From: Sediminibacterium sp. Gen4
GTDB lineage: Bacteria; Bacteroidota; Bacteroidia; Chitinophagales; Chitinophagaceae
Length of the DNA stretch: 64,000 nucleotides
Direction of reading: 5' to 3'
Assembly: GCA_013391385.1 (NCBI GenBank)
Contig: JACBFI010000002.1
Coordinates: 153,484-217,483, forward strand
Part shown: in pieces, positions 11,659 to 55,668 of the stretch
Layout: the number at the start of each line of letters is the position of its first letter
Numbering within the stretch: position 1 is the first letter of the stretch
Translations under genes and position numbers: made by a program
The notes under the pieces: model-generated
Told to the model about the DNA's origin: nothing
Databases searched by the model: none
Seen by the model: the letters and a program-made list of their open reading frames with translations, nothing else

Positions 11659-11728
11659 ATAGCAAATGGGTTATAGCGTATCGAAGTAAAGATTTGCTAT
11701 CAACCATATGCTATAACCCATTTGCAAA
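11659..11728. repeat. Inverted heptad-period element G
   Basis: Perfect 16-base inverted arms (11662-11677 and 11710-11725). The left arm reads as four 7-base units each starting AT (from 11659: ATAGCAA, ATGGGTT, ATAGCGT, ATCGAAG), the right arm as four units ending AT (from 11694: TTGCTAT, CAACCAT, ATGCTAT, AACCCAT). The shorter pair 11659-11667/11692-11700 is also complementary, so two alternative folds exist. No T-run follows, so it is not a normal terminator. Confidence 0.8.
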
Positions 11729-11731
11729 AAA

Positions 11732-12661
11732 GTGAACCCATCATCCTCCAAAATCAACACCCTCGGTTTCCTCATCACCATCGGTGGTGCTATCTTCTTT
11801 TCTACGAAAGCCATTTTTGTTAAGTTGGCTTTTCAGGATACCAAAGTGGATGCGGTGACTTTGTTGTGTTTGCGAATGCTCTTCTCGCTACCCTTTTATA
11901 TCGGTGCCGCATGGATTGCGCATAGAAAAGAGGGTGTGGTTAAACTTACGCGAAAGCAATGGGGATGGGTATTGACCATGGGTATATTCGGCTATTACTT
12001 GAGTAGTCTATTTGATTTCATCGGACTGCAATATGTATCAGCAGGCTTAGAGCGATTGATTCTTTTTCTATATCCCACATTTGCAGTGCTGATCAATACT
12101 TTTTACTTCAAAACAAAACTGAGTCGCATACAGGTATTGGCATTGCTATTAACGTATATAGGTATTGGAACTGCTTATTGGGGTGAGATCAGATCAGCAC
12201 AATATGGACCTCAATTCTTCTATGGATCATTCATGATCTTTTTATGTGCTGTCACTTATTCATTTTATTTGGTGGGTACTGGTAGACTCGTAAACGCAGT
12301 TGGCGCCACCCGATATACGGCTTATGCTATGCTGGCTGCCAGTGCCGGCATTTTCACACACTTCCTGCTCACACATCCTGTTCAGAATGTGGTTATGACT
12401 TCATCATTGGCAGGTTATGGAATCGCACTTGCCATTATTGCCACTGTTTTGCCTTCATTTATGATGAGTGTTGGCATGAAAAAAATAGGTAGTAATAATG
12501 TGGCTATTATTACCAGCATCGGTCCCGTATCCACTATTCTACAAGCCCATTTTTTCTTAGGTGAAACCATCATACCTGAGCAAATATTGGGTACCGCATT
12601 GGTAATTGTAGGTGTTATACTCATTGGATGGCAATCAAAAATTGCTACTGAACCCAGTTGA
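11732..12661 (+). CDS. EamA/DMT-family transporter
   Basis: A 309-residue membrane protein with ten hydrophobic segments arranged as two EamA repeats, e.g. LGFLITIGGAIFFSTKAIFV at the start and VAIITSIGPVSTILQAHFFLGE in the second half. Family members export or import amino acids, nucleosides or other small metabolites at the inner membrane; the substrate cannot be read from sequence. The start is GTG: a stop lies six codons upstream in frame and no ATG falls between. Element G ends 4 bases before this start, so it would form part of the leader if transcribed from dapD. Confidence 0.88.
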   Translation: MNPSSSKINTLGFLITIGGAIFFSTKAIFVKLAFQDTKVDAVTLLCLRMLFSLPFYIGAAWIAHRKEGVVKLTRKQWGWVLTMGIFGYYLSSLFDFIGLQYVSAGLERLILFLYPTFAVLINTFYFKTKLSRIQVLALLLTYIGIGTAYWGEIRSAQYGPQFFYGSFMIFLCAVTYSFYLVGTGRLVNAVGATRYTAYAMLAASAGIFTHFLLTHPVQNVVMTSSLAGYGIALAIIATVLPSFMMSVGMKKIGSNNVAIITSIGPVSTILQAHFFLGETIIPEQILGTALVIVGVILIGWQSKIATEPS

Positions 12662-12732
12662 TCTTCCTTATTTTTTACCGACATTTTCCCGCCACTTACC
12701 GCCCCCTCACCCCTTATTACCTATTTCCACTT

Positions 12733-12761
12733 TTGCAAGGATTATGGCAGCATTAGTTTCG
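12733..12761 (+). promoter_or_regulatory. Promoter for LiaF-like/LytS/LytTR operon
   Basis: TTG at 12733-12735, an 18-base spacer, then TAGTTTCG at 12754-12761, which fits TAnnTTTG at seven of eight positions. The start codon follows 17 bases downstream. Confidence 0.4.
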
Positions 12762-12778
12762 TACTAAATATTCATGGT

Positions 12779-13537
12779 ATGAAAAATAATGGTTACGATA
12801 TCAGAAACTATAACGACAGATTTTTTACCGGTGTGGTTATGATCATAGTAGGTGGTGCTATCCTTTTGAAAAGATTGGGCGTACCATTTCCGGGTTGGCT
12901 CTATGACTGGTCAGCAATTGTAATTTTGATTGGCCTGATCTCAGGTATCAAAGTAAGGTTTAAAGGTGTATCATGGCTCATCTTTATAGCGATCGGTGCA
13001 TTCTTTATGCTCGATGAGGTTGTTAAAGACAAAAATATTCGTCCGTATATCTGGCCTGTCCTCATAATAGGTATCGGACTCATTTTATTATTCAGACCTA
13101 AAAGAAAAACCATCAATATTCAAGATGTAGAAGAGGGTTTAGCTCCCACCATCATAGAAACAAAGCCCTATGATACGGAAGTAAATACTGCAATAGATGA
13201 TTATATTGACTGCACCTCTGTTTTTGGAGAAGTGAAGAAGATGGTTACATCAAAAAGTTTCAAAGGCGGAGAGATCGTATGTTTCATGGGAGGTTCTCAA
13301 ATCAATCTTACACAGGCAGATATACATGGACCCATTTTTTTAGAAGTGACGATTGTATTTGGAGGCACTAAAATAGTGGTACCCCCTAATTGGGAAGTAA
13401 GATCTGAATCTGTAGCTGTGTTTGCGGGTATTGAAGACAAAAGAAATTTACTGCCCGGCAGCAGATTCGACCCTAATAAAGTACTGATCATAAAAGGCAC
13501 TTCCGTATTTGGTGGCATTGAGATCAAAAGTTTTTAA
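12779..13537 (+). CDS. LiaF-like membrane protein
   Basis: A 252-residue protein. Residues 18-105 hold four short hydrophobic segments (RFFTGVVMIIVGGAILLKRLG, WSAIVILIGLISGI, WLIFIAIGAFFML, IWPVLIIGIGLILLF), the LiaF/DUF5668-type four-TM domain. Residues 135-252 form a soluble beta-rich domain (SVFGEVKKMV, GGEIVCFMGGSQINL, VFGGTKIVVPPNWEV, SVFGGIEIKS) like the cell-wall-active antibiotic response domain. LiaF in Firmicutes restrains an envelope-stress kinase. Here the gene leads an operon with DUF4288, a LytS-type kinase and a LytTR regulator, so a sensing or restraining role is a reasonable inference. Confidence 0.8.
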   Translation: MKNNGYDIRNYNDRFFTGVVMIIVGGAILLKRLGVPFPGWLYDWSAIVILIGLISGIKVRFKGVSWLIFIAIGAFFMLDEVVKDKNIRPYIWPVLIIGIGLILLFRPKRKTINIQDVEEGLAPTIIETKPYDTEVNTAIDDYIDCTSVFGEVKKMVTSKSFKGGEIVCFMGGSQINLTQADIHGPIFLEVTIVFGGTKIVVPPNWEVRSESVAVFAGIEDKRNLLPGSRFDPNKVLIIKGTSVFGGIEIKSF

Positions 13538-13555
13538 ACCTAACCTCTTTCAATC

Positions 13556-13915
13556 ATGGAATGGTATCTTGCCAAACTCGTGTATCGCTTTGAGCCAACA
13601 ACAGCCAATGATGCAGTTCATTTTGAAGAACAGATCAGATTGGTGGAGGCTGAAGATGAATTACATGCTTTCCACAGAGCACAGCAAATAGGTAGTCAGG
13701 AAGAATGTCATCTGGAATATGAAAATGGGGTGCCTATTCACTGGTATTTTATGGATGTTACAGAGCTCTTGAAGTTGCATAGCATGATGGATGGTGCTGA
13801 GATATTATCCCAATCACACAAAACAACTGAACCGGAAGCGTTTCAGAAAAATATCAGGTTAAAAGCAGGATATTTGTTAGCCAACTGTACTGATCAATTC
13901 CTTCAATCCAGATAA
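13556..13915 (+). CDS. DUF4288-like protein
   Basis: A 119-residue soluble protein starting MEWYLAKLVYRFEP and containing HFEEQIRLVEAEDELHAFHRAQQIG and WYFMDVTELLKL. The WY.AKL.Y opening, the E..R...A.....A...A..IG middle and the W.F..V.EL end match the DUF4288 pattern. Function unknown. It sits 18 bases behind the LiaF-like gene and 3 bases before the histidine kinase, so it is in the same operon. Confidence 0.75.
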   Translation: MEWYLAKLVYRFEPTTANDAVHFEEQIRLVEAEDELHAFHRAQQIGSQEECHLEYENGVPIHWYFMDVTELLKLHSMMDGAEILSQSHKTTEPEAFQKNIRLKAGYLLANCTDQFLQSR

Positions 13916-13918
13916 CGC

Positions 13919-14980
13919 ATGGTTACATCCATCACAAAAGGGCGAAGTTTCTATCTTGCTTTTACTTCCTGGTGGGTAGTGTGGACTGTCATTCATGTAT
14001 GGGTTTTGGATGAATACCAAATTAAACTATTTTCTGCCTTAACCGATGCGTTTATTTCTAATTTTTTGTTGGCTTCTTTCTGCTTACTTGTCGTTAATAA
14101 CATGCAATACTATCTTCCTCGAAAAGAAAGGTATTGGTATATTCTTATTGTGAGTCTGGTATTGAGCAGTATGTATCTTTTTATCAGCAGATTGATTCTT
14201 CGTTTTATTTTCAAGGAAGATGACATGTACCTGAACTTACTCAAACAATCATTTTACATCAGGTATATCACCGGCTTTTTGATGATTGGTTGTATGTCAA
14301 TGATCAGTTTGTTATGGTATACCCTCAAAGAGCAACAAGAAAATGAACAAAGAAAAGAGGAAGCAGAAAAAATTGCGAAAGATGCTGAGTTATTGAAACT
14401 CAGACAACAATTACAACCGCATTTTTTATTCAATAGTTTGAACTCGATCAGTGCACTTGCAGGTAGCCAGCCCGAGAAAGCAAGACATATGATTCAACAA
14501 TTATCAGATTTTTTACGCGGCACATTAAAAAAAGAAGAGCATCAATTGGTGAGTCTGCGTGAAGAGATACATCATTTACAATTGTACCTTGATATTGAGA
14601 AAGTACGTTTTGGCCATCGCTTACAAACAGTTTTAGAAATTGATGAAAAAGCAGCAGACATGCTAATTCCGGTTCTGTTGTTACAACCTGTTGTAGAGAA
14701 CGCTATTAAATTCGGATTGTACGACACAACGGAAGAAGTATTGATCCGTATTATAGCTACTACAAAAGATGATCAATTATTAGAGATAATGATACAAAAT
14801 CCATTTGATCCTTTAACCTCAGTTCATACACACGGTACCGGTTTCGGACTGGCTTCTATTGCCCGAAGATTGTATCTTATGTATGCACGTCAGGACCTGA
14901 TCAGAACAGAAAAACAGGAACAATTATTTTCAACCTATATTATTATCCCACAGTTGAATCATGAAAGTAATCATCATTGA
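13919..14980 (+). CDS. LytS-type sensor histidine kinase
   Basis: A 353-residue membrane kinase. Four hydrophobic segments lie in residues 12-135 with no large outer domain, then a coiled coil (EQQENEQRKEEAEKIAKDAELLK) and the His_kinase block LRQQLQPHFLFNSLNSISAL with the phospho-accepting His near 165. The ATPase part has the N-box VVENAIKFGL and a G-box GTGFGLASIARRL. Its last 20 bases overlap the LytTR regulator start, so the two are translated together. The lack of a sensor domain fits signalling through the LiaF-like partner. Confidence 0.93.
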   Translation: MVTSITKGRSFYLAFTSWWVVWTVIHVWVLDEYQIKLFSALTDAFISNFLLASFCLLVVNNMQYYLPRKERYWYILIVSLVLSSMYLFISRLILRFIFKEDDMYLNLLKQSFYIRYITGFLMIGCMSMISLLWYTLKEQQENEQRKEEAEKIAKDAELLKLRQQLQPHFLFNSLNSISALAGSQPEKARHMIQQLSDFLRGTLKKEEHQLVSLREEIHHLQLYLDIEKVRFGHRLQTVLEIDEKAADMLIPVLLLQPVVENAIKFGLYDTTEEVLIRIIATTKDDQLLEIMIQNPFDPLTSVHTHGTGFGLASIARRLYLMYARQDLIRTEKQEQLFSTYIIIPQLNHESNHH

Positions 14981-15698
14981 TGACGAGCCCCTCGCCAGAG
15001 GTATCGTAAAAGAATATTTACAATCCTACCCTGATCTTCAGGTAGTACAGGAATGTGGTGACGGATTTGAAGGGGTAAAAGCCATTCAACAATACCAACC
15101 CGACCTGGTAATCCTTGATATTCAAATGCCTAAAATCAATGGTTTTGAGATGCTGGAGCTGATTGAAAATCCGCCGGCTATTATTTTCGCAACCGCATTC
15201 GAAGAATTTGCGATCAAAGCATTTGAAACGCATGCTATTGATTATCTCTTGAAGCCATTTAGTAAAGAGAGATTCCAAAAAGCAATAGAAAAATGGAAAC
15301 AGACTGAAAGTGGAACGCAGCAACATATAACCCATGAATTGATGGATGCTGCTGCTATATCACCTCAACAACAGCATCGAATTGTTTTGAAGGATAATGG
15401 AAAAATAAAAATCATTCCAACACAACAGGTACAATATTTTGAAGCGGCAGATGATTATGTGAAAATCCATACAGCAGATGGTGTTTTTCTAAAAAACAAG
15501 ACCATGCAATTCTTCGAGCAGAAAATGGATACCGGTAATTTTGTGAGAATACATCGCTCTTACTTAGTCAATATACACCTGATTAGTAGAATAGAGCCCT
15601 ATGAAAAAGATAGTCATCTCGCCATTCTTAGTATTGGCGTTAGATTGCCGGTAAGTAAGACCGGATATGTAAAATTGAAAAATGTACTGGGGATTTAA
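14961..15698 (+). CDS. LytTR-family response regulator
   Basis: A 245-residue cytoplasmic regulator. Receiver domain 1-120: IIDDEPLARGIV acidic pocket, phospho-Asp in LVILDIQMPKINGFEML (about residue 54), and the KPF motif LLKPFSKERF. LytTR DNA-binding domain about 140-245: IVLKDNGKIKIIPTQQVQYF, ADDYVKIHT and RIHRSYLVNIHLI, the usual motifs. It pairs with the kinase it overlaps and may control the operon itself. It ends 8 bases before a converging receiver gene. Confidence 0.94.
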   Translation: MKVIIIDDEPLARGIVKEYLQSYPDLQVVQECGDGFEGVKAIQQYQPDLVILDIQMPKINGFEMLELIENPPAIIFATAFEEFAIKAFETHAIDYLLKPFSKERFQKAIEKWKQTESGTQQHITHELMDAAAISPQQQHRIVLKDNGKIKIIPTQQVQYFEAADDYVKIHTADGVFLKNKTMQFFEQKMDTGNFVRIHRSYLVNIHLISRIEPYEKDSHLAILSIGVRLPVSKTGYVKLKNVLGI

Positions 15699-15706
15699 TC
15701 CAATGC

Positions 15707-16126: not shown

Positions 16127-16143
16127 GGTTCAAAAGTTTTAAA

Positions 16144-16173
16144 GAGCTTTGCAGGAAGATACCTGCAAAGCTC
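16144..16173 (-). other. Strong hairpin upstream of the receiver gene
   Basis: Perfect 12-base stem (16144-16155 with 16162-16173) around a 6-base loop. A second small hairpin (6-base stem) lies at 16175-16191. On the minus strand the large stem is followed by CTTTAAAACTTTT, so it may end transcription coming from the LuxR-type regulator or act in the leader of the receiver gene. Confidence 0.6.
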
Positions 16174-23017: not shown

Positions 23018-24139
23018 ATGGCAAAAGTAAAAAGCGTTGCAAAGACAAAATCAAAATCAATCCTGACAGACAAATCCATTGATTTTCTAAAAAAATACAT
23101 CAACACCCCCTCTCCCGTTGGCTTTGAAAGCAGTGGTCAAAAAGTTTGGTTGGATTATGTGAAACCTTACACAGATAGTTTCTTTACAGATCCTTATGGA
23201 ACAGCGGTGGGTGTCATTAATCCGACAGCACCTTTCAAAGTAGTGATTGAAGCCCATGCTGATGAAATCAGTTGGTTCGTGAATTATATCAATGACCAAG
23301 GATTGATCTATTTAAAGAGAAATGGTGGTGTAGATCATCAGATTGCACCTGCGATGCGAGTTTTTATACATGGTAAAAAAGGACCGGTGAAAGCAGTCTT
23401 TGGTTGGCCTGCTATTCATACCCGCCTCAGTAATCCCGATACAAAAGAACCACAACCCAAAGTAGATAACCTTTGTTTGGATTGTGGTGCACGCAATAAA
23501 AAAGAAGTAGAGGCTTTGGGTATACATATCGGCGCAGTAGTTACCTATCAAGAAGGTTTTGATGAATTGGCCAATGACTTTTATATCGGTCGTGCTTTTG
23601 ATAACCGTATCGGTGGATTCATGATTGCTGAAGTTGCGCGACTGCTACATGAAAACAAAAAGAAACTGCCCTTTGGTTTATATGTGGTGAATGCTGTTCA
23701 AGAAGAGATTGGATTAAGAGGTGCTGAGATGATCGCTAGAAGAATTAAACCTGATATTGCCATTGTAACTGATGTTACACACGATACCAGCACTCCCATG
23801 ATCAGCAAGATCATTGAGGGTGATATCCAATGTGGCAAAGGTCCTTCACTGGCTTACGCTCCTGCTATTCATAACAAATTGTTGAAAATAGTGGAAGATG
23901 CAGCAGAGAAAAACAAAATCCCTGTTCAATTCAGAACATTGAGTAGAAGTACCGGAACAGATACGGATAGTTTTGCTTATGCCAATGATGGATGTCCGTC
24001 AGTATTGATTTCAATACCATTAAGATACATGCACACCACTGTGGAGATGTTGCATAAAAATGATATTGAAGAAACCATCAAACTGATGTACCATACGCTT
24101 TTAACATTAACACCTAAAACAAACCTGAGTTATCTTTGA
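23018..24139 (+). CDS. M42-family metallopeptidase (FrvX/PepA-like)
   Basis: A 373-residue cytoplasmic aminopeptidase or deblocking peptidase. The family pattern is plain: INTPSPVGFESSGQKVW at the start of the fold, EAHADEISWFV (first metal His), YIGRAFDNRIGG (bridging Asp), VVNAVQEEIGLRGAEM (catalytic Glu pair), VTDVTHDTSTP and, near the end, PLRYMHTTVEML with the last metal His. The first 15 residues are lysine-rich and extend beyond the usual family start. A heptad-type inverted element follows the stop. Confidence 0.93.
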   Translation: MAKVKSVAKTKSKSILTDKSIDFLKKYINTPSPVGFESSGQKVWLDYVKPYTDSFFTDPYGTAVGVINPTAPFKVVIEAHADEISWFVNYINDQGLIYLKRNGGVDHQIAPAMRVFIHGKKGPVKAVFGWPAIHTRLSNPDTKEPQPKVDNLCLDCGARNKKEVEALGIHIGAVVTYQEGFDELANDFYIGRAFDNRIGGFMIAEVARLLHENKKKLPFGLYVVNAVQEEIGLRGAEMIARRIKPDIAIVTDVTHDTSTPMISKIIEGDIQCGKGPSLAYAPAIHNKLLKIVEDAAEKNKIPVQFRTLSRSTGTDTDSFAYANDGCPSVLISIPLRYMHTTVEMLHKNDIEETIKLMYHTLLTLTPKTNLSYL

Positions 24140-24216
24140 TCTATGATTTCTTGATCTGTGATTTCTTGATTTTTTTATTCTTCAGAAAATCAAGAAATCA
24201 CAGATCAAAGATCAAA
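24136..24216. repeat. Inverted element A after the M42 gene
   Basis: Two 15-base tandem units (24136-24150 and 24151-24165, one mismatch) plus a partial third, then perfect 21-base inverted arms 24153-24173 and 24186-24206 around a 12-base loop. Subunits of 7-8 bases all start TGAT. The + strand stem is followed by AAAAAAT, not by T. Confidence 0.85.
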
Positions 24217-24227
24217 AAATCCCCCCC

Positions 24228-25073
24228 ATGTGGTCTGAGAAAAAACAAATAAGAGTAGCCGTACTGGATCTGTATGAAGGTCAGGCCAACCAGGGTATGC
24301 GTTGTATTAAAGAGATTGTTCACAATTGGGCTTCTGATAAAGGTTTTGATCTTGTTTACGAGGAATTCGATGTTAGACAAAAGCTGTCCGTCCCCGATAC
24401 TTCATTTGATATCTATATCTCTAGTGGGGGTCCGGGCTCACCTTTAGAAACAGAAGGCTCTGCATGGGAAGCCGCTTATTTTGGTTGGCTGGAAAGCATT
24501 GAAGCTTTCAACAAAACCGCAGTTGATTCCGATAAAAAAAATGTATTCTTTATCTGTCATAGTTTTCAATTGGTGTGCAGGCATTATGGAATTGGCAATG
24601 TATGTAAAAGGCGATCCACTGCTTTCGGTGTATTTCCTATTCATATGTTGGATTCGGGTACCGAAGAGCCGGTATTTGATGGACTGAGAGATCCTTTTTA
24701 TTCTGTGGATAGTCGAGACTATCAAGTTATTGAACCGGATATCCGTAAGCTTACGGCGATGGGGGCATCGATATTGGCGATTGAAAAAAACAGACCACAT
24801 GTACCTTATGAACGTGCAGTGATGGCCATCCGTTTCAATGATCATTTTATTGGCACCCAGTTTCATCCGGAAGCTGATGCCGTGGGCATGCACATGTATT
24901 TAATGAGAGAGGATAAAAAGAAAACGGTGATTGATAACCATGGAGAAGCCAAATGGCAAAGCATGGTGGAGCAATTACAGGATCCTGAAAAAATACTCTT
25001 CACTTACCATACCATTCTACCTAATTTTTTGAATCAATCTGTTCAGGAAGCAATCTTTTCACAACAAGGTTAA
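24228..25073 (+). CDS. Class I glutamine amidotransferase-like protein
   Basis: A 281-residue protein with a GATase1 fold. It has the oxyanion segment YISSGGPGSPLE (64-75), a nucleophile elbow FFICHSFQLV with Cys110, and the second half of the triad in GTQFHPEAD (His213, Glu215). The ICHSFQ elbow replaces the common G.C.G.Q. These enzymes release ammonia from glutamine, or hydrolyse gamma-glutamyl bonds, for a partner. The next gene, 75 bases downstream, encodes an ATP-grasp-like ligase, a natural partner. The N-terminus starts right after a run of seven C. Confidence 0.87.
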   Translation: MWSEKKQIRVAVLDLYEGQANQGMRCIKEIVHNWASDKGFDLVYEEFDVRQKLSVPDTSFDIYISSGGPGSPLETEGSAWEAAYFGWLESIEAFNKTAVDSDKKNVFFICHSFQLVCRHYGIGNVCKRRSTAFGVFPIHMLDSGTEEPVFDGLRDPFYSVDSRDYQVIEPDIRKLTAMGASILAIEKNRPHVPYERAVMAIRFNDHFIGTQFHPEADAVGMHMYLMREDKKKTVIDNHGEAKWQSMVEQLQDPEKILFTYHTILPNFLNQSVQEAIFSQQG

Positions 25074-40120: not shown

Positions 40121-40258
40121 ACCTGATGATTTGGGTTAGGCTAAAATTAGACCCTAACACAAAAGAAAGGTGTGCATGTGAATAAAATTAATTCTCTCGT
40201 GCTTTTTAGGAAAGCTTTTGCACATCAGTGAGGGAGAAGCGGTTGATTTCACGAGGCG

Positions 40259-40335
40259 TTAACAGTTGAGAGTTGACAGTTGACTGTAAAAAATACCCTC
40301 CTGTCAACTGTCAACTATCATCTGTCAACTATTAT
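40259..40335. repeat. Inverted heptad-period element B
   Basis: Left arm from 40259 reads TTAACAG, TTGAGAG, TTGACAG, TTGACTG; right arm from 40301 reads CTGTCAA, CTGTCAA, CTATCAT, CTGTCAA, CTATTAT: strict 7-base period. Perfect inverted core 40271-40284 with 40303-40316, 18-base loop. The right arm supplies the TGA stop of the SPFH gene (40325-40327). Twenty bases (40301-40320) recur exactly inside gcvP at 54160-54179. The rest of 40121-40258 holds no feature I can see. Confidence 0.9.
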
Positions 40336-42317: not shown

Positions 42318-42345
42318 AAAAAAAGGTTTCAGATTTGCAACCTTT
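42318..42345 (-). terminator. Terminator-like stem after the tRNA remnant
   Basis: A 7-base stem AAAGGTT/AACCTTT (42322-42328 with 42339-42345) with a T-run on the minus strand. It resembles the stronger terminator after tRNA-Ala and looks like a decayed copy of it. Confidence 0.5.
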
Positions 42346-42349
42346 ACTG

Positions 42350-42423
42350 TGGAGAATACCGGATTCGAACCGGTGGCCTTCCCGATAGCATCGGGACGCT
42401 CAAGCCAACTAAACAAGTAATTG
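42350..42423 (-). pseudogene. tRNA pseudogene, GCT-like anticodon loop, broken acceptor
   Basis: Read on the minus strand this 74-base stretch has an intact T-arm (ACCGG TTCGAAT CCGGT), an intact anticodon arm (TCCCG, loop ATGCTAT, CGGGA; anticodon GCT), a D-arm kept only by G-T pairs (GTTT/GAGC) and the same acceptor 3' strand as the neighbouring tRNA-Ala (ATTCTCC, A). The 5' acceptor strand CAATTAC pairs with it at only two of seven positions. The variable loop is short, unlike a serine tRNA. It lies 38 bases after tRNA-Ala and looks like a duplicate that has decayed. Confidence 0.7.
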
Positions 42424-42429
42424 TAGGAA

Positions 42430-42458
42430 TAAAAAAGGTTGCAGAATGTGCAACCTTT
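42430..42458 (-). terminator. Terminator of tRNA-Ala
   Basis: A 10-base perfect stem (42434-42443 with 42449-42458) with loop GAATG and a T-run on the minus strand, three bases after the tRNA 3' end. Confidence 0.85.
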
Positions 42459-42461
42459 CTG

Positions 42462-42535
<74 letters not shown>

Positions 42536-43174: not shown

Positions 43175-43207
43175 AAAAAAAGTCCGGAAAGAAATTCCGA
43201 ACTTTTT
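43175..43207 (-). terminator. Terminator after gltA
   Basis: Stem AAAAAGTCCGGAA with TTCCGAACTTTTT (one mismatch) around a short loop, with an A-run at 43175-43180 that reads as a T-run on the minus strand. It follows the gltA stop by about 30 bases, with a heptad run between. Confidence 0.7.
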
Positions 43208-43231
43208 GACTTTTGACTTTTCACTTTTGAC
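43204..43231. repeat. Heptad tandem repeat E
   Basis: Four consecutive 7-base units: TTTTGAC, TTTTGAC, TTTTCAC, TTTTGAC. No inverted arm is present. It lies between the gltA stop and its terminator stem, sharing its first Ts with the stem. Confidence 0.8.
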
Positions 43232-43237
43232 TTATTC

Positions 43238-44560
43238 TTACTCCCAAATCTCACCTTTCCCCTCCAGCCACTCTTTCACCGCTTCAGTGGTCACAGATTT
43301 TGGACGTTCAATCGGCAAACCGAGTGCTCTGTCCCAACATAAGCTGGCGAGTACACCCAACGCTCTGCTGACAGCAAAGAGAACAGTGTAGAATTCGTAT
43401 TCTACCAGCCCATAATGTACCAACAACGCACCACTATGTGCGTCTACATTCGGCCATGGATTTTTCACTTTACCTAATGATTCAAGAATGGGAGGAACGG
43501 TTTCATATACTTTCCAAACTGTATTCACCAGTTTATCATCCGGCATGTGTTTTTTACCAAATTCCATTTGTGCAGTGAAGCGAGGATCGGTTTTACGCAA
43601 TACTGCGTGACCATAACCCGGCACTACTTTACCACCTGCCAATGTTTTCTGTACGTAATCAGCGATCTGTTCTTTGGTAGGATCATCTGTTCCCAGTTGT
43701 TCCTGCATTTCAAAAATCCATTTGATCACTTCCTGATTGGCCAATCCGTGTAAGGGACCTGCCAAACCATTCATACCTGCTGCATAACTCAAATAGGGAT
43801 CACTCAGCGCTGATCCTACGAGGTGTGTAGTATGCGCAGATACATTACCACCCTCATGATCGGCATGAATGGTCATGTATAAACGCATCAGTTCTTTGAA
43901 GCTTTCATTTTCATAACCCATCATGTGCGCCAGGTTACCTGCCCAATCCAACAGACCATTGGGTTGAATATGTTCGTTATTCTTGTATTTACGACGATAG
44001 ATATAGGCCGCGATACGTGGCAAACGGGCAATCAGATCCATGGCATCATCGTAAACCGGATTCCAATATTCTTTTTTATTGATACCCTTTGCGTATTCTT
44101 TTGCAAAATTACTTTCAGTCTGCAATGCCATCACACCCGTAACAAACATGGTCATAGGATGGGTATTGATAGGCAATGCATCAATCGTATGAAACACATG
44201 ATTCGGCACATGGCTTCTTCTCTGCCATACACTGGTAATGTGATTGGCATCTTCTTCTGTTGGCAATTCACCCACCAACATCAGATAAAATAAACCTTCC
44301 GGCAAGGGTTCTCCACCACCGGGTACTTTGGGAAGTTTCTCCTGTAATTCAGGAATAGAATAGCCTCTGAATCGGATACCTTCCTGAGCATCCAGTAAAC
44401 TTGTTTCCGTTACTAAACCGGTAATACCTCTCATTCCCTGATAAGCTTGTGCAAGAGTTACTTCACCGATCTTTTTATTTCCGTGTGTTTTGAGGATGTC
44501 TTTTATCTCAGCATTCGCAGCATCTGCTTTTGCCTTGAAACGATCTTTAATAATTCCCAT
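43238..44560 (-). CDS. gltA: Citrate synthase, mitochondrial/eukaryote-like type
   Basis: Condenses oxaloacetate and acetyl-CoA in the TCA cycle. The 440-residue protein resembles mitochondrial citrate synthases more than the common bacterial type: it has GMRGITGLVTETSLLDAQEG, IRFRGYSIPE, SNFAKEYAKGINKKEYWNP, IHADHEGGNVSAHTTHLVG (first catalytic His), NGLAGPLHGLANQEV (second His), VVPGYGHAVLRKTDPRF (third His) and NVDAHSGALLVHYGL (catalytic Asp). No mitochondrial targeting sequence precedes it. Such genes are known in Bacteroidota. Confidence 0.96.
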   Translation of the reverse strand: MGIIKDRFKAKADAANAEIKDILKTHGNKKIGEVTLAQAYQGMRGITGLVTETSLLDAQEGIRFRGYSIPELQEKLPKVPGGGEPLPEGLFYLMLVGELPTEEDANHITSVWQRRSHVPNHVFHTIDALPINTHPMTMFVTGVMALQTESNFAKEYAKGINKKEYWNPVYDDAMDLIARLPRIAAYIYRRKYKNNEHIQPNGLLDWAGNLAHMMGYENESFKELMRLYMTIHADHEGGNVSAHTTHLVGSALSDPYLSYAAGMNGLAGPLHGLANQEVIKWIFEMQEQLGTDDPTKEQIADYVQKTLAGGKVVPGYGHAVLRKTDPRFTAQMEFGKKHMPDDKLVNTVWKVYETVPPILESLGKVKNPWPNVDAHSGALLVHYGLVEYEFYTVLFAVSRALGVLASLCWDRALGLPIERPKSVTTEAVKEWLEGKGEIWE

Positions 44561-47006: not shown

Positions 47007-47025
47007 TTGGCAAAAATAGGTAACT

Positions 47026-47137
47026 ATGTCTGATCTCTGATTTCAGATGTCTGATTTAGGATATAGGGCATGGGGAACACTTATTCACTTTGTGTTTTAT
47101 TTGAGATATCTGAAATCAGACATCCGACATCAGACAT
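47026..47137. repeat. Inverted heptad-period element C
   Basis: Left arm from 47026 has six 7-base units that all start with AT (ATGTCTG, ATCTCTG, ATTTCAG, ATGTCTG, ATTTAGG, ATATAGG). Right arm from 47103 has five units that all end in AT (GAGATAT, CTGAAAT, CAGACAT, CCGACAT, CAGACAT). Perfect inverted pairs are 47023-47034/47129-47140 and 47036-47048/47108-47120. It fills the space between divergent tgt and the GT2 gene. Confidence 0.9.
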
Positions 47138-47207
47138 AGTCCGACTTTGTTTTCCACATCTTCACAAGCCACTCAAACATAGACTGTTGAAGCACTATTT
47201 TTGCGGG

Positions 47208-48332: not shown

Positions 48333-48946
48333 TCCTGAAATACTTCGATGATTTCACCCCGCATCAAATCAAACAGTTTGAAGCACTGGAAGAATTGTAT
48401 AAAGAATGGAATGCCAAGATCAACGTGATCTCACGCAAAGACATCGACAGTATCTATTTGCATCATGTATTACACTCATTGAGTATTGCTGCCATTGCTG
48501 ATTTTCAGCCGGGTACTGAAGTAATCGATATTGGCTGTGGTGGCGGATTTCCCGGTGTGCCATTAGCTATCTTTTTTCCTGAAGTCAAGTTTCATTTGGT
48601 AGATAGTATTGCTAAAAAATTGAAAGTAGTAGAAGCCGTTGCTGAAGGTGCAGGCATCAAAAATATTACTACACAACATACACGTGCAGAAGACATCAAA
48701 AACAGAAAATTTGATTTCGCTGTTTCGCGTGCGGTGGCTCCTTTGAAAGAGCTCTGGCAGTGGGCCGGACCTTTACTGAAGAAAGGACACAAGCAGGAGA
48801 TGGCTAACGGATTAATTTGTTTAAAAGGTGGTGATCTGGCGCAGGAAATATTTGAAAGCGGATTGAGACCTAAAATGATGCCGGTAGATAAGATCTTTCC
48901 CGAATCATATTTTGATGAGAAGTATATTTTGCATGTAACCAAATAA
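48302..48946 (+). CDS. rsmG: 16S rRNA (guanine527-N7)-methyltransferase RsmG
   Basis: Methylates G527 of 16S rRNA. The ATG at 48302 gives 214 residues starting MESTPQKLGLILKYFDDFTP; the longer frame would begin deep inside the GT2 gene. Motifs: EWNAKINVISRKDIDSIYLHH, EVIDIGCGGGFPGVPLAIFF (SAM site), HLVDSIAKKLKVVE, TRAEDI and FAVSRAVAPL. Loss of this enzyme gives low-level streptomycin resistance in other bacteria. Translation is probably coupled to the GT2 gene. Confidence 0.96.
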   Translation: MESTPQKLGLILKYFDDFTPHQIKQFEALEELYKEWNAKINVISRKDIDSIYLHHVLHSLSIAAIADFQPGTEVIDIGCGGGFPGVPLAIFFPEVKFHLVDSIAKKLKVVEAVAEGAGIKNITTQHTRAEDIKNRKFDFAVSRAVAPLKELWQWAGPLLKKGHKQEMANGLICLKGGDLAQEIFESGLRPKMMPVDKIFPESYFDEKYILHVTK

Positions 48947-48950
48947 ATCC

Positions 48951-49037
48951 CTCTGCTCAACTCTGTGCCTTACTCTGTGTATCTCTGTGGTTAACCGCAG
49001 AGGTAAAAGAGTTTGGCACAGAGTTGCTCGGAGCGAT
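48951..49037. repeat. Inverted element D with CTCTGTG repeats
   Basis: CTCTGTG occurs at 48961, 48973 and 48983. Inverted pairs: 48959-48969 with 49015-49025 (11 bases), and a central near-palindrome 48983-49002 (CTCTGTGGTT/AACCGCAGAG, one mismatch). It lies between the convergent rsmG and antiporter genes. The spacing is 10-12 bases, not 7. Confidence 0.8.
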
Positions 49038-49040
49038 TTT

Positions 49041-51266
49041 TTAAGGATGATACAATTGTTGGATCTTCTTTCTGTTTCCTACGATCCATACAATATCATC
49101 CCACTCCAATTGTGTGAAAGAAGATGGATTGAGGATACGTTCTCCTTTTCTTTCAATACCTACTACCAATCCATTTGTTTTCTCACGGATGCCGGATTCA
49201 CGAATGGTCAATCCTTTCAAACGGGTATGTTCATCTACTACGATCTTTTCCAATTCCACCAACTCTTTTTCACTATCCGCATCTTCCACATAAGGCACCA
49301 TGATTTTTCCGAACTCCAGCATTTGCTGATCGGTTCCAATGACGCCAATATTATCAAAGGGGAATATTTTTTCTGTTCGGGCAGGCGCGAACATCACATG
49401 ATTACCTCTTTCGATGAAAGCGATATTAATACCATACGTCTCTCGCCATTGTAATTCTTCCAATGTTTTTCCAATAAAACCGGCATGTGGACTGATTTTA
49501 TAATGGGTCAAGTGCGCATCCCAAGGCGAAAGATGACTTTGTGTTTTGTTTTGTTCTAGCAACTCACGCTCATGCAGGTTTTGCAAGAAGCGATCTTCCA
49601 GTCGCTGATAAAATTTTTGTAAACGCTGACGAAAAACCACACCAATCACAATCATGGCTACCAGCGTTCCTCCTACCGTTATCCAAAAACTAAATAACTG
49701 GCGAAGCATAAAGCCCACCAGTAAAACTGCAATCGCATTTCGGGCAATCTCTAGCATCACAAGCGGACCATGGCTATATTTTCTGTCGAGCCATAATGCA
49801 GCATAGGCACTTTTGCTCATTTTCTTTACCGTTAATGCCCAGATAAATGGCGCCATCACAATCAGTCCGATCAATGCTGCAATGATTTTAGCAGTTAATG
49901 GATCTGCTATTGACTTTTGTAAGAAAGGCTCTAAGAAATATGCTACCAATAAACTCAATGCAATCATAATAACGCCATTGAGAATAATGATCTGGATATA
50001 AAAATTCAATAATCGTTTCCAATTGCTTTCACTTTCGATGATCTGAGAACTACTACTATATTTTTCAAGTCCACGGATCCATTTCTCCGGGAGTACTTTT
50101 AGTAAGAACTGATACAATGGTTCTGCCAGCTTGATCATATAAGGGGTAGTAAAAGTGGTAATTACCGAAACCCCTACTGCAATGGGATATAAATAAGAAC
50201 TGGTAACATTTAAAGACACTCCTAAAGTGGCTATGATAAAAGAAAACTCCCCGATCTGCGACATACTTGTTCCAGCTTGCACTGCTTGCTTCAAGGGTCT
50301 ACCTGCTAATAATGCGCCACTGGCCACAAAAATGGTTTTTCCCAATATCACAGAAAGGGTAAGTATCAAAACAGGAACCGCATAGTCAACCAATATCTGC
50401 GGATCGATCAACATCCCTACAGATACAAAGAAGATTGCACCAAAAAGATCTTTTACAGAAGTAATGAGGTGTTCAATTTTATGTGCCTGTGTTGTTTCTG
50501 CCAGAATAGAACCCATGATAAAAGCACCCAGTGCAGCAGAGAAACCTACTTGATCAGCCAAAACCACCATCCCCAAACACAAGGCAAGGGATAATACCAA
50601 TAAGGTTTCACTATTTAAAAAGCGACTTACTTTCTTGAAAAAAGTGGGTAGTAAAAAGATTCCCATCAGAAACCATAGACATAAGAAGAAAAGAAGTTTA
50701 CCGATAGATAGGAACATTTGTGTGCCTTCAAATTGTTGACTGACTGCTACGGTTGATAATAAAACCATCAAGAGAATCGCTACCAAATCTTCGATAACAA
50801 GTACTCCAATAACCAGACTGCTAAATTGTTTTGTTTTCAGACCCAATTCATCAAATGCACGAAAGATGATCGTAGTAGAAGATATGGCTATGATACCACC
50901 TAAAAACATACTATCCATGTTCGACCAGCCCAATACCTGACCCATACCATAACCCAACATCATCATGAATGATAATTCTGTAATACCGGTAATGGCAGCA
51001 GAACCTCCTACTTTCACCAGCTTCTTAAAACTAAATTCAAGACCTAATGCAAACAACAAAAACACAACCCCAATCTCCGCCCATATTTTTATACCTTCCA
51101 CATCACCAATAGTGGGAAATAATTTGAAATTGGGGCCAACAAGTAACCCCGCAATAATATATCCCAGTACTACAGGCTGTTTGAGTTTCTTGAAGAAAAT
51201 GGTAATAATTCCAGCCGCACCTAATATCAGTGCCAGGTCTTTGATCAATAAAGGTAAATGCGCCAT
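49041..51266 (-). CDS. CPA2-type cation:proton antiporter with TrkA-C domain
   Basis: A 741-residue protein. Residues 1-390 form the Na+/H+ exchanger domain with about 12 helices (IIAGLLVGPNFKL; LFALGLEFSFKKL; GFSAALGAFIMGSILAET). Then a further membrane region (FYIQIIILNGVIMIALSLLVAY, and ALIGLIVMAPFIWALTV), and at the end a TrkA-C-like regulatory domain (HAGFIGKTLEELQWRETYGI; ERILNPSSFTQLEWDDIVWI). KefB/GerN-like transporters of this type move K+ or Na+ against protons. Confidence 0.93.
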   Translation of the reverse strand: MAHLPLLIKDLALILGAAGIITIFFKKLKQPVVLGYIIAGLLVGPNFKLFPTIGDVEGIKIWAEIGVVFLLFALGLEFSFKKLVKVGGSAAITGITELSFMMMLGYGMGQVLGWSNMDSMFLGGIIAISSTTIIFRAFDELGLKTKQFSSLVIGVLVIEDLVAILLMVLLSTVAVSQQFEGTQMFLSIGKLLFFLCLWFLMGIFLLPTFFKKVSRFLNSETLLVLSLALCLGMVVLADQVGFSAALGAFIMGSILAETTQAHKIEHLITSVKDLFGAIFFVSVGMLIDPQILVDYAVPVLILTLSVILGKTIFVASGALLAGRPLKQAVQAGTSMSQIGEFSFIIATLGVSLNVTSSYLYPIAVGVSVITTFTTPYMIKLAEPLYQFLLKVLPEKWIRGLEKYSSSSQIIESESNWKRLLNFYIQIIILNGVIMIALSLLVAYFLEPFLQKSIADPLTAKIIAALIGLIVMAPFIWALTVKKMSKSAYAALWLDRKYSHGPLVMLEIARNAIAVLLVGFMLRQLFSFWITVGGTLVAMIVIGVVFRQRLQKFYQRLEDRFLQNLHERELLEQNKTQSHLSPWDAHLTHYKISPHAGFIGKTLEELQWRETYGINIAFIERGNHVMFAPARTEKIFPFDNIGVIGTDQQMLEFGKIMVPYVEDADSEKELVELEKIVVDEHTRLKGLTIRESGIREKTNGLVVGIERKGERILNPSSFTQLEWDDIVWIVGNRKKIQQLYHP

Positions 51267-51336
51267 AATCCATTCTTTTTGTTTACAATTTTGCTGCTAT
51301 CGAACGGCGATAATATACAAAAAAAATGGCAACCCT

Positions 51337-51801: not shown

Positions 51802-51837
51802 GTGATAATTTGATCAAAGTTAAATAGTTCCTTGGGT

Positions 51838-52632
51838 TTACAAGAATATGAGGTAAACCAACATGAAGATCATTAAAACGGCTAACCAGAAAATAGTTCC
51901 CAATATATTCGCTATCACTACCATGAAAAGATCTCCAAAACCATTGAGTATCAAAAATCCTTTATACGCGTAACAGATATATATGATTTGAAGTAACAGA
52001 TTCGCCAATCCAATCCACAATTTACTTTCCGGGGGTAAAATACCTAAAAGCGGTAGAAATAACAGACTACTTGCCAACGATAAAAAACAGGTAAGTAAGA
52101 GGTACGCCACTAAATGCTCCGCATAGTTGTAGCCTTTGCCTTTGAATACCAACCAAAAGCCCAAAGCCATCAGTGGCGCTGTAATAAAAACCATGAGGTT
52201 CATTTTCTTTTCGAGCCACTCATTCAACTTCGCTTGTTTATCCGCCATCGTGGTCATAAATGCTTTTTTCTTTTCGGATTTAGCCAAGGCAATTTGTTCT
52301 TTATAGACAGATTCAGACCCCTGCATCGGATGAAAAATAGAACTCATGAAGACGGTGATACCTAATACCAATAATAAGAGTGTAAAAGGATTGAAATATT
52401 TTTTACGCTTTCCTTCTACAATATATTCTCTAAGTACTGTAGACGGTCTTACTACCAAATCTCTTAATAAGATCAATGCACCCTTGTCTGTATGCGTAAA
52501 AGCATGCAAAAACTCGTGTACCAGATGTTTGATATTGAACCGATGTATCGCTGTTGATTGACCACAATCAGGACAATGTTTAAAAGCCGGATCTAATGGC
52601 GTTGCACAGTTGGAACAATTCAGGGCAGTCAT
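51838..52632 (-). CDS. DUF3667-like protein with zinc ribbon
   Basis: A 264-residue protein that starts with a zinc ribbon (CSNCATPLDPAFKHCPDCGQ, four Cys), then a DUF3667 segment (HEFLHAFTHTDKGALILLRD and VRPSTVLREYIVEGKRKKYFNPF), and four or more membrane helices (LVAYLLLTCFLSLASSLLFL; VVIANILGTIFWLAVLMIFM). Very typical for Bacteroidota. Role unknown; the ribbon sits in the cytoplasm next to the membrane. Confidence 0.9.
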   Translation of the reverse strand: MTALNCSNCATPLDPAFKHCPDCGQSTAIHRFNIKHLVHEFLHAFTHTDKGALILLRDLVVRPSTVLREYIVEGKRKKYFNPFTLLLLVLGITVFMSSIFHPMQGSESVYKEQIALAKSEKKKAFMTTMADKQAKLNEWLEKKMNLMVFITAPLMALGFWLVFKGKGYNYAEHLVAYLLLTCFLSLASSLLFLPLLGILPPESKLWIGLANLLLQIIYICYAYKGFLILNGFGDLFMVVIANILGTIFWLAVLMIFMLVYLIFL

Positions 52633-52763
52633 GTGTTATATTATAGAATTAAAAATATTTAAACTATTGGATTCACAGCTTATCAACCGGGTAAACAAAA
52701 GATGAATTTTCACGTTCGGTAGACTTACCTTTGCCGCGTTTAAAATTCTGCCTTCCCGGCGGT

Positions 52764-52771
52764 TATTTTTG
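52764..52771 (+). promoter_or_regulatory. -7 box for gcvP
   Basis: TATTTTTG fits TAnnTTTG exactly, 26 bases before the ATG. No TTG is found at the ideal distance. I see no glycine riboswitch in the 165-base leader region. Confidence 0.45.
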
Positions 52772-52797
52772 TCTAACTATTTAAGTCTATCAATATT

Positions 52798-55668
52798 ATG
52801 AATCTTTTTGAACAGCAGTCAGCCGAATTTCAAACAAGACATATCGGACCCAATCAAGCCGATACTGAGTCCATGCTCAAAACCATCGGTCTATCTTCGA
52901 TGGAGGAATTGATCAGCAAGACCATTCCGGACAGCATCCGCATCAAAAAACCTTTGGGCATTCCTGCTGCTGTTAGTGAGTTCACGTATTTGACAGAATT
53001 GAAAAAGGTTGCTTCCAAAAATAAGCTTTACAAGAATTTTATTGGACAAGGATATTATGGCACGATTACACCCAGTGTGATCCTGCGTAATATTTTCGAA
53101 AATCCGGGATGGTATACCCAATACACACCCTACCAAGCTGAAATATCGCAGGGGCGTTTGGAAAGTTTATTGAACTATCAGACCATGGTAGCTGATCTGA
53201 CCGGATTACCGATCTCGAATGCTTCTTTATTGGATGAAGCCACAGCTGCTGCTGAAGCCATGGCCATGATTTTTCACCACATCAATAAAACAGATGTGAT
53301 CAGCAGACCTAAATTGTTTGTTGACCAACATACTTTCCAGCAAACCATTGATGTATTGATTACGCGTGCTGAGCCGATTGGTATTGAGGTAGTGGTGGGC
53401 GATTACCAAACCGCAACTATAGACAATTCCTATTTCGGTGCCCTGATCCAATACCCTAACAGCAAAGGTTCTGTAAATGATTACAAAGCATTCATTGATC
53501 AGGTTCATGCGGTTGAAGGATTGGTGATCATGGCTACTGATTTGTTAGCACTCACGGTATTAACTACACCGGGTGAGTTGGGAGCAGATGTTGCAGTAGG
53601 TAGTGCTCAACGCTTTGGTGTTCCGATGGGATTTGGTGGACCACATGCTGCTTTCTTTGCTACCAAAGATGATTTCAAAAGAGGCATCCCCGGTCGATTG
53701 ATTGGCGTGAGCATTGATGCACAAGGCAATCGTGCTTTACGTATGGCGCTGCAAACAAGAGAGCAACACATTAAAAGAGAAAAAGCTACTTCCAATATTT
53801 GTACCGCACAAGCATTGTTAGCCAATATGGCTGCGATGTATGCGGTATATCATGGTGCAAGTGGATTGAAAAATATTGCTACACGTGTTCACCAGTTAAC
53901 ACAAGCATTGGCCGGCGAATTGAAAGCTTTGGGAGTAACCCTGCACAATGAAAGCTATTTTGACACTTTGCATGTATCAGGAATCAATATTGACACTTTG
54001 AAGAAAAATGCGGAAGCCGCAGAAACAAATTTCTTCTATACTGCAGATGCAGTTGTGATCAGTTTGGATGAAACCACATCTGTTGATGATGTGAATCATA
54101 TTCTGAACATCTTCGCACAAACAACAGGCAAACAAGCAGCAACAGTCAACACACAAAATCTGTCAACTGTCAACTATCAACTCCCCACAACTCTCCAGCG
54201 TACATCCGCATACCTCACCCACCCTGTATTCAACACACACAGAAGTGAGAGCCAGATGATGCGTTATATCAAACAACTGGAGAATAAAGATCTTTCCCTG
54301 AATACCAGCATGATCAGTTTGGGTAGTTGTACCATGAAGCTGAATGCTGCTTCTGAAATGATTCCTGTTACCTGGCCGGAGTTTGGAGGGCTACATCCTT
54401 TTGTGCCTACATCACAAACAGCAGGTTATCAGCAGATCATTGATGAACTAAATGATTATCTCTGTAAAGTAACCGGATTCACCGCTTGTAGTTTGCAGCC
54501 TAATAGCGGCGCACAAGGTGAATATGCAGGATTGTTGACCATCCGCGCTTATCACGCAGCAAGAAATGAATCACACAGAAATATTGTCTTGATCCCGATC
54601 AGTGCACATGGTACCAATCCAGCAAGTGCGGTGATGGCCGGTTTTAAAGTAGTAGTAGTGAAGTGTGATGATGCAGGTAATATTGATGTTGCAGATCTGA
54701 AAGCTAAAGCTGAACAATACAAAGATACATTGGGTGCATTGATGGTGACTTACCCATCCACACATGGTGTATTTGAAGAAACCATCCGAGATATCTGTCA
54801 AACCATTCATGACAATGGTGGACTGGTATACATGGATGGTGCAAATATGAATGCGCAGGTTGGATTGACGAGTCCGGGTATGATTGGTGCAGATGTTTGT
54901 CACCTGAACCTACACAAAACATTTTCTATTCCACATGGTGGTGGTGGACCGGGTATGGGACCTATCTGTGTGAATGATAAATTGGCTCCATACTTACCCG
55001 GACATACTGCTTTAGGTAATGCGAATTTAGCAGTGAGTGCAGCGCAGTATGGTTCTGCAAGTATTTTGTTGATCAGTTATGCGTATATCAAAATGTTGGG
55101 TGAAGAAGGTATTCGTCAGTCTACCGAATATGCGATTCTGAATGCCAACTATATGAAAGCTAGATTGGAGCAGTATTATAAGATATTGTATACCGGAAAG
55201 AATGGTACTTGTGCGCATGAATTCATTGTAGATCTTCGTCCATTCAAACAAAGTGTGGGTATTGAAGCGGAAGACGTGGCCAAGCGATTGATCGATTATG
55301 GCTTCCATGCACCTACCATGAGCTTCCCTGTGCCGGGTACTATTATGATTGAACCCACAGAGAGTGAGGATAAGGGTGAATTGGATCGCTTCTGTGATGC
55401 GTTGATCTCTATTTATAAAGAAATCAAAGCCATTGAAGATGGGAAAGCAGATAAGAATGATAATCCATTAAAGAATGCACCACACACTCAAGCTGTTGTT
55501 TGTGCAGATGAATGGAAGCATGGATATAGCCGTCAGGAAGCAGCATTCCCATTGTATTATGTAACCCAGAATAAATTCTGGCCAAGTGTGGCGAGGGTGA
55601 ACAATACACATGGCGACAGAAACCTGATCTGTACTTGTGAGCCGGTTTCTTCTTACATGTCTGAATAA
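52798..55668 (+). CDS. gcvP: Glycine dehydrogenase (decarboxylating), fused P-protein
   Basis: P-protein of the glycine cleavage system: PLP-dependent decarboxylation of glycine. The 956-residue chain holds both halves in one: N-terminal ([59 protein letters not shown]) and C-terminal ([50 protein letters not shown]; and [19 protein letters not shown] with the PLP lysine). At the joint (about residues 445-468) there is an insertion-like segment that includes LSTVNYQL, coded by a heptad repeat. gcvT and gcvH are not in the window. Confidence 0.97.
54160..54180 (+). repeat. Heptad repeat F inside gcvP
   Basis: Units CTGTCAA, CTGTCAA, CTATCAA in a strict 7-base period. The first 20 bases equal 40301-40320 of element B exactly. 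It reads through the gcvP frame as LSTVNYQ (residues 455-461) without a stop. No inverted arm is found nearby. Confidence 0.85.

What the first reader, a model, noticed from the sequence alone, without database searches (positions are those of the whole stretch)
11659..54180. A class of elements defined by a strict 7-base period and inverted arms, not by sequence
Five separate places (11659, 40259, 43204, 47026, 54160) carry 7-base units in which one dinucleotide keeps its phase. Three are inverted pairs: left arms read AT-N5 (11659, 47026) or TT-N5 (40259), right arms N5-AT or N5-AA. The remaining bases differ fully between most loci. A copied mobile repeat would share sequence; here the shared trait is geometry. 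That points to a local generation process (slippage plus template switching on a short seed), or to a protein or RNA that reads the 7-base helical step. I know of no described family with this definition; similar low-complexity runs do occur between genes in other Bacteroidota.
Basis: partly seen in the sequence, partly recalled or inferred. Interest (0 to 1): 0.8.

Follow-up and report, generated by a model that had tools for sequence, protein, structure and literature searches.

The report
Seven-base hairpins that rewrite themselves
This bacterium carries more than a hundred short DNA arrays built on a strict seven-base beat, many of them hairpins sitting right behind genes, whose letters can change between related species while the beat and the mirror pairing stay, so they look like DNA that copies itself in place rather than ordinary mobile repeats.

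Summary
Real, and far larger than the window. In 859 kb (24%) of the window's genome there are 110 seven-base-period arrays, 102 of them between genes; apart from multiples of seven no other period comes near. 58 of 109 have an inverted partner. Ten degenerate seven-letter words cover 90 of 110, so the window loci differ because they carry different words. Each word has one or two free positions and one polarity (43 of 43 assigned hairpins). Elements prefer convergent to divergent gaps and, in tandem gaps, start a median 5 nt after a stop codon. In the genus, a probe finds them in 36 of 121 genomes. Against G095 (about 83% DNA identity) units differ, both arms usually change together (4 of 6 sites), and at 11659 the whole word is replaced behind the same stop codon. 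Behind citrate synthase 4 of 30 other genomes carry flagged arrays, none with the window's word. Best reading: slippage plus hairpin-templated copying in place. Heptamer repeats with inverted pairs near stop codons are published for Xanthomonas (PMC4692102), so this is a new variant. No responsible gene was found.

The parts
11646..11725 (.). heptad hairpin that begins at the stop codon of the upstream gene (11646-11648); arms 11662-11681 and 11706-11725; a different word stands at the same site in G095
   Evidence: 95% complementary; same site in L332
40258..40329 (.). heptad hairpin, word AGTTGAC / GTCAACT, arms 40258-40284 and 40303-40329; its right arm overlaps the stop codon (40325-40327) of the Band_7/SPFH gene on the - strand
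43204..43233 (-). single heptad array, word AGTCAAA on the - strand, between the citrate synthase stop (43238-43240) and a terminator-like hairpin; G095 keeps a shorter version, below the detection threshold
47023..47140 (.). heptad hairpin, word ATGTCTG / CAGACAT, arms 47023-47055 and 47108-47140, in the divergent gap between tgt and a glycosyltransferase; no array within 330 nt upstream of tgt in 26 of 26 relatives read, mostly genomes poor in arrays; present with changed units in G095
54160..54182 (+). single heptad array CTGTCAACTGTCAACTATCAACT inside gcvP, in frame, in a linker of variable length; kept in G095
24132..24212 (.). further hairpin built of mixed 7- and 8-base units; it starts 8 bases before the end of the + strand ORF 23018-24139 and ends before the + strand ORF 24228-25073; inner arms 24151-24173 / 24186-24208 are 23 of 23 complementary

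Best explanation
The elements are heptad arrays, many of them hairpins: an array of about 3-6 degenerate 7-base units, a loop (median 24 nt) and an inverted copy of the array. They arise and are renewed in place by DNA synthesis errors: slippage in 7-base steps lengthens, shortens and shuffles the units, and the nascent strand folds back and copies one arm from the other (quasi-palindrome template switching). This keeps arms alike within an element while units drift, and now and then whole words are replaced, between species. They persist mostly directly behind stop codons and away from promoters, where an insertion harms least and the array often supplies stop codons in all frames. Shown: period, pairing, polarity, position, patchiness, shared sites with changed units or words, arms that change together at 4 of 6 sites. 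Inferred: the copying mechanism and near-neutrality. Unexplained: why a word recurs at many loci (some copying between loci is needed), why polarity is fixed, and what switches the process on in some lineages.
For: Lag 7 and its multiples alone are in clear excess. 58 of 109 arms have an inverted partner, 4 of 109 a direct one, 16 of 109 for flanks of other arms (95th percentile of 20 draws). Same site, different word: 11659 against G095; behind citrate synthase, 4 of 30 loci from other array-bearing genomes have a flagged array within 160 nt of the stop (G046, G062, G065, G096), none with the window's word. Arms alike within an element (91% pooled) more than orthologous arms between species (82%) over six sites compared with G095, clearly so at 4 of the 6; at L202_2473 each species has identical arms (22/22, 30/30) with different units. 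Gains: in 5 of 5 array-bearing gaps with conserved neighbours the gap is shorter in G017, which has no array in 500 kb; array-free conserved gaps are also longer here, but by a median of only 9.5 bases (18 gaps). Stops in all three frames: 31 of 54 arms next to a stop in sense, 14 of 54 in antisense. Template switching can create and maintain hairpins (PMC8794818, abstract and opening text read).
Against: One word recurs at tens of loci, which purely local generation does not predict. The unit-order test gave no difference between partners of one element and arms of other loci (Mann-Whitney p 0.73), though the own partner was strictly the best match in 9 of 31. In the arm comparison with G095 one site is a tie (40258) and at one the own arms match worse (30 of 41) than the orthologous arms (9 of 10 and 18 of 21); the sites were 6 of 14, picked because both genomes show a hairpin there, and arms were picked by complementarity, which favours the within value. 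The word itself is kept at 5 of those 6 sites. Fixed polarity in all gap types is not predicted by symmetric fold-back. Arms starting 0-12 nt after a stop are not in phase with that stop codon (27 of 90 bases against 23-35 at other phases), so seeding from the stop codon is not supported. Selection for stem pairing would also make arms change together.
Confidence: 0.5

Rival explanations
1. Functional 3'-end hairpins: selection keeps a long RNA stem behind genes (end protection or termination), and period 7 is a by-product of how stems are made.
For: Position right behind stop codons (median 5 nt in 49 tandem gaps; median 1.5 in 12 tandem gaps of other genomes); convergent 17 of 63 against divergent 9 of 112 gaps of at least 60 bases; 43 of 43 hairpins up to 160 nt fold far better than shuffles (median z -7.9; 3 of 46 longer ones left out); in this genome gaps with arrays hold fewer terminator-like hairpins (convergent 3 of 17 against 23 of 46; tandem 7 of 47 against 68 of 246).
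Against: U-tract after only 4 of 92 hairpin ends; the terminator deficit was not seen in other array-bearing genomes (convergent 5 of 8 against 12 of 15, tandem 3 of 12 against 19 of 88); three tandem elements sit where G017 has gaps called as 1, 23 and 61 bases, the last one TAG-c-ATG by eye, so probably inside operons; by eye a terminator-like hairpin follows the array at several citrate synthase sites; 85 of 121 congeners show fewer than 5 hits of the probe.
Confidence: 0.2
2. Mobile palindromes moved by an HUH (Y1/RAYT-like) transposase or similar enzyme.
For: Same word at many unrelated loci; genus genomes with a Y1_Tnp gene more often carry arrays: 25 of 29 with, 11 of 92 without (size at least 2.9 Mb: 21 of 22 against 10 of 23, p 2e-4). 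Two of the 29 rest on weak matches (G048, G061).
Against: 11 of 36 array-bearing genus genomes have no Y1_Tnp match, among them 99-100% complete ones (G132, G042, G095); the window genome's single Y1 gene is flanked by its own, unrelated REP-like palindromes (by eye); among 19 same-word loci similarity is mostly limited to the element, with exceptions such as L002/L023 (134 bases at 96%); words can change in place between species.
Confidence: 0.12
3. Binding arrays for a protein that touches only some bases per 7-base step.
For: Fixed core phases with one or two free phases per word (three in one word), validated on held-out loci (varies within the array in 88% for the named phase against 28% for the others); fixed head-to-head polarity.
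Against: Ten different words; different words at one site; no probe hit in several complete congeners. No candidate protein was searched for.
Confidence: 0.08

Closest known systems
GGGAATC heptamer repeats of Xanthomonas (Rehm et al. 2015, PMC4692102; sections 10, 14, 15 and 16 and passages read)
   Same: Period 7, degenerate units with conserved and free positions, 89-93% intergenic, close to the stop codon of the upstream gene, more convergent than divergent gaps, convergent inverted pairs (70 and 75 cases in two genomes).
   Different: One G-rich word able to form quadruplexes against ten words without GGG here; [quoted passage not shown] here different words can stand at one site. Presence/absence across a genus was not described in the parts I read.
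Heptanucleotide long simple sequence repeats (Mrazek et al. 2007; paper not held; known here only through PMC4679880 and PMC4692102)
   Same: Seven-base units reported as the most abundant class in most genomes; polymerase slippage over a 7-base contact proposed.
   Different: As cited there, these are tandem simple repeats; inverted arms and polarity are not part of the definition.
TAACTGA direct repeats of Beggiatoaceae, Cyanobacteria and five Bacteroidetes (MacGregor 2015, PMC4679880; abstract, introduction and passages read)
   Same: Mostly intergenic heptamer arrays with a patchy distribution, stops in all frames.
   Different: One word; in the main genome 169 direct sets and one indirect, mostly just before start codons.
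REP/REPIN palindromes with RAYT (PMC3733652, PMC3116915: search listing only)
   Same: Small palindromes in high copy, mostly outside genes.
   Different: Here no common word, an internal period of 7, and no strict link to a Y1 gene.

Membership tests
Heptameric intergenic repeats (LSSR / Xanthomonas GGGAATC type) | tandem units of 7 bases in excess over other periods | tested here: met
   35 islands at lag 7, 0-3 at lags 3-13; multiples of 7 follow
Heptameric intergenic repeats (LSSR / Xanthomonas GGGAATC type) | mostly intergenic, next to stop codons, rarer between divergent genes | tested here: met
   102 of 110 intergenic; median 5 nt after the stop in 49 tandem gaps, 9 of 112 divergent gaps
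Heptameric intergenic repeats (LSSR / Xanthomonas GGGAATC type) | convergent inverted pairs | tested here: met
   58 of 109 arms paired; one polarity per word, 43 of 43 assigned
Heptameric intergenic repeats (LSSR / Xanthomonas GGGAATC type) | GGG tracts able to form quadruplexes (Xanthomonas/Nostoc subtype) | tested here: not met
   none of the ten consensus words has GGG; single units with GGG occur
REP/REPIN-RAYT | shared palindrome sequence with a Y1 transposase in the genome | tested here: not met
   11 of 36 array-bearing genus genomes lack a Y1_Tnp match; own Y1 gene flanked by other palindromes
REP/REPIN-RAYT | GTAG or CGTC tag at one end | not tested
   tag known from the title of PMC3733652 only
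MITE | conserved ends and interior with target-site duplication | tested here: inconclusive
   19 same-word loci: similarity mostly limited to the element, some exceptions; duplications not tested
Intrinsic terminator | hairpin followed by a U-tract | tested here: not met
   4 of 92 hairpin ends
TAACTGA repeats | the word TAACTGA, upstream of start codons | tested here: not met
   none of the ten words is a rotation or complement of it and tandem-gap elements sit by the stop, not the start; the word itself was not searched for
Reverse-transcriptase-made repeats | reverse transcriptase in the genome | tested here: not met
   no PF00078 match in the window genome, which is 98% complete

The most novel reading that the evidence does not exclude
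Some bacterial lineages gain and lose a dedicated, still unknown activity that writes polarised hairpins in 7-base steps behind genes, fixes some positions of a word and leaves one or two free, and rewrites both arms together, so that period, polarity and site are inherited while the sequence is not. The Xanthomonas, cyanobacterial and Bacteroidota heptamer repeats would then be outputs of one process.
Probability: 0.15. Interest if true: 0.9.

Novelty: new variant of a known kind. Interest (0 to 1): 0.7.

Why it matters
Heptamer repeats have been noted as an unexplained excess in bacterial genomes for years. Here many words coexist in one genome, a probe shows hundreds of hits in some congeners and none in others, and syntenic species pairs show changed units, sometimes a changed word, at fixed sites with both arms changing together. 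That turns the old guess (slippage over a 7-base polymerase contact) into something testable, suggests why sequence-based repeat searches would miss the class, and warns that paired changes in a stem need not mean a selected RNA.

Tried and rejected
Y1/RAYT transposase as sole machinery: strong correlation but 11 of 36 array-bearing congeners lack it and the own Y1 gene has its own palindromes. Reverse transcriptase: none in the window genome. NHEJ: 5 of the 6 Ku-bearing genus genomes carry arrays, but 31 of the 36 array-bearing ones, the window genome among them, lack Ku. Loss of the hairpin nuclease SbcCD: no SbcD_C match in any of 121 genus genomes, so permissive at most. Intrinsic terminators: no U-tract; a terminator deficit in this genome (in most length classes) was not seen in others. 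Seeding from the stop codon: an in-phase signal (71 of 150 bases against 37-48) was gone for arms starting after the stop. Unit-order conservation: a first test on pairs chosen for complementarity looked positive; without that choice there was no difference. The mirror-read control is useless because the pattern is mirror-symmetric; the control column is itself 7-periodic and was used as a second word probe. The probe covers only part of the words, so low counts do not prove absence. Samples from G132, G100 and G095 held 2, 0 and 0 arms under the threshold although one search counts many hits in those genomes. Gene positions rest on a home-made caller. The ten words and their orientation were set by eye, so the polarity count tests consistency within words only; 3 of 46 hairpins matched no word (1 plus, 2 minus). 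Searches showed several loci from the wrong side; one search repeated both comparisons with the gene located in each locus, and the report uses.
Full report
Observation. The five places exist as described, three as inverted pairs and two as single arrays. A lag scan of the window finds lag 7 at four places and little at other lags. The array at 54160 lies in frame inside gcvP, where linker length varies among 32 relatives and where G095 keeps it. A sixth hairpin, with mixed 7- and 8-base units, lies at 24132-24212.

Scale. Forty stretches of the window genome plus the window (859 kb of 3.52 Mb) hold 110 arrays under one threshold. In the window and the first 20 stretches (464 kb), lag 7 gives 35 islands, lags 3-13 give 0-3, lags 14 and 21 (multiples) 22 and 6, lag 15 gives 3, and one Markov simulation none at lag 7 (28-base window). 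102 of 110 arrays are intergenic although 88% of bases are called coding. Gaps of at least 60 bases with arrays: convergent 17 of 63, tandem 47 of 293, divergent 9 of 112 (convergent against divergent p 0.0015, tandem against divergent p 0.037). In 49 tandem gaps the element begins a median of 5 nt after the upstream stop and ends 64 nt before the next start; other array-bearing genomes give 1.5 and 90 in 12 tandem gaps. The gene caller is home-made.

Words, free positions, polarity. 98 arms of at least 28 bases reduce to 42 distinct heptamers against about 92 for random words of the same composition. Ten words, chosen by eye, cover 90 of 110 arms at 75% match or better; 20 fit none that well. 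In each word one to three positions vary in nearly every array while the rest vary less; the phase named most variable on half of the loci varies within arrays of the other half in 88%, other phases in 28%. In 43 of 43 assigned hairpins the same strand form is the 5' arm, in all gap types including four in divergent gaps; 3 of 46 fit no word. The 5' arm has more G than C in 32 of 46 own hairpins (10 fewer, 4 equal) and in 16 of 19 from other genomes (2 fewer).

Pairing. 58 of 109 arms have an inverted partner within 150 bases, 4 a direct one; flanks of other arms give 16 at the 95th percentile of 20 draws. 46 ungapped hairpins have a median arm of 27 and a median loop of 24 nt. 43 of 43 hairpins folded (3 longer ones left out) are far more stable than shuffles. 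By eye, one hairpin sits in the loop of another of a different word (L205).

Distribution. Same-genus samples of nine other genomes (520 kb) hold four islands; G017 has none in 500 kb. A probe for part of the words, over 200 relatives, gives 200 own hits, up to 284 in G123 and none in several 100% complete congeners; 36 of 121 genus genomes (own included) reach 5 hits counting both probe columns, and 14 of the 85 others are at least 2.9 Mb. Among 80 named gcvP loci (1.29 Mb, mostly Bacteroidota) 23 hold lag-7 islands (36 islands; other lags 4-13 give 0-10). The highest gcvP identity among named records is Sediminibacterium sp. (82%, partial), so the genus is probably Sediminibacterium or near it (inference).

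Same site in other genomes. Upstream of tgt, 26 of 26 relatives whose gene start is held (22 same genus, 4 same order; mostly array-poor genomes) have no array within 330 nt; G095 does have one there. In five conserved gaps against G017 the G017 gap is shorter in every case; the 18 array-free conserved gaps are longer here too, by a median of 9.5 bases. G095 is syntenic, mostly at 82-86% DNA identity, with two shorter matches at 74-76%. Fourteen sites with a flagged array in either genome were found: 7 flagged in both, 4 in G095 only, 3 here only; by eye several of the one-sided ones have a remnant in the other genome. At 11659 the same stop codon is followed by a different hairpin of the same period. 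At L202_14213 G095 has a heptad hairpin where the window genome has another palindrome type. At six sites, picked because both genomes show a hairpin, arms match each other within an element (91% pooled) better than the orthologous arm (82%): clearly at four, a tie at 40258, and at L064_17619 the own arms match worse than the orthologous ones. Arms were picked by complementarity, which favours the within value. At five of the six the word is the same in both genomes. The gcvP and citrate synthase arrays and L202_17540 keep their word. Behind citrate synthase, 30 loci from 30 other array-bearing congeners (35 searched) were read: 4 have a flagged array (G096, G046, G065, G062), each with a word other than the window's; by eye G095 has the window's word, and G107, G078, G089 and G104 have further arrays below threshold; the rest show none.

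Mechanism. Slippage in 7-base steps plus hairpin-templated copying explains changed units, occasional word change at a fixed site and concerted arms. Template switching can create and maintain hairpins and has been proposed to explain base asymmetry in stems (PMC8794818 abstract and opening text); quasipalindrome mutations in E. coli are known (PMC7202029, search listing). Position and orientation bias fit tolerance: behind stops, away from promoters, stops in all frames in 31 of 54 facing arms against 14 of 54 in antisense. Against it: word recurrence across loci, fixed polarity, and a unit-order test without difference.

Candidate genes. Y1_Tnp correlates but is not required. No reverse transcriptase in the window genome. 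Ku is absent from it and from 31 of 36 array-bearing congeners. SbcD_C was not detected in the genus.

Known kinds. Searches for heptamer repeats with inverted, palindromic or intergenic features found PMC4692102 and PMC4679880 as nearest, and PMC6749651, which notes satellites derived from heptamers (passages). The Xanthomonas repeats share period, position, orientation bias and convergent pairs, so the kind is known. In the listings of those searches of an open-licence library, and in the parts of papers I read, I saw no description of many words in one genome, a shared polarity across words, or word replacement at fixed sites.

Noticed in passing
window 48942-49042; L209 about 7610-7925; L074 about 9977-10124; L202 about 14213: A second palindromic repeat type (arms like CAACTCTGTGCC / GGCACAGAGTTGC) lies in similar places, once at a site where G095 has a heptad hairpin.
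   Followed up: partly
L259 about 5900-6300 (G000 C59:89901-90239): The genome's single Y1 transposase-like gene is flanked by REP-like palindromes (CCGGACT..AGTCCGG next to TATTTAAAT); similar ones stand in two other gaps (L070).
   Followed up: partly
L205 1186-1365: A palindrome of one word sits in the loop of a hairpin of another word: a nested element, by eye.
   Followed up: no
window 42319-42535: A 112-base near-repeat (42319-42522) overlaps tRNA-Ala (42461-42535) and may be a duplicated tRNA end.
   Followed up: no
G000 C12:95, C36:62, C17:97: Three contigs of the window genome have a heptad array within about 100 bases of their start.
   Followed up: no
121 genomes of the genus: No match to the SbcD C-terminal domain (PF12320) in any of them, while 11 genomes of other families of the order and a Bacteroides control match.
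   Followed up: partly
G013, G160, G195: High counts in the second probe column (86, 205, 142), meaning that other heptad words probably dominate there.
   Followed up: no
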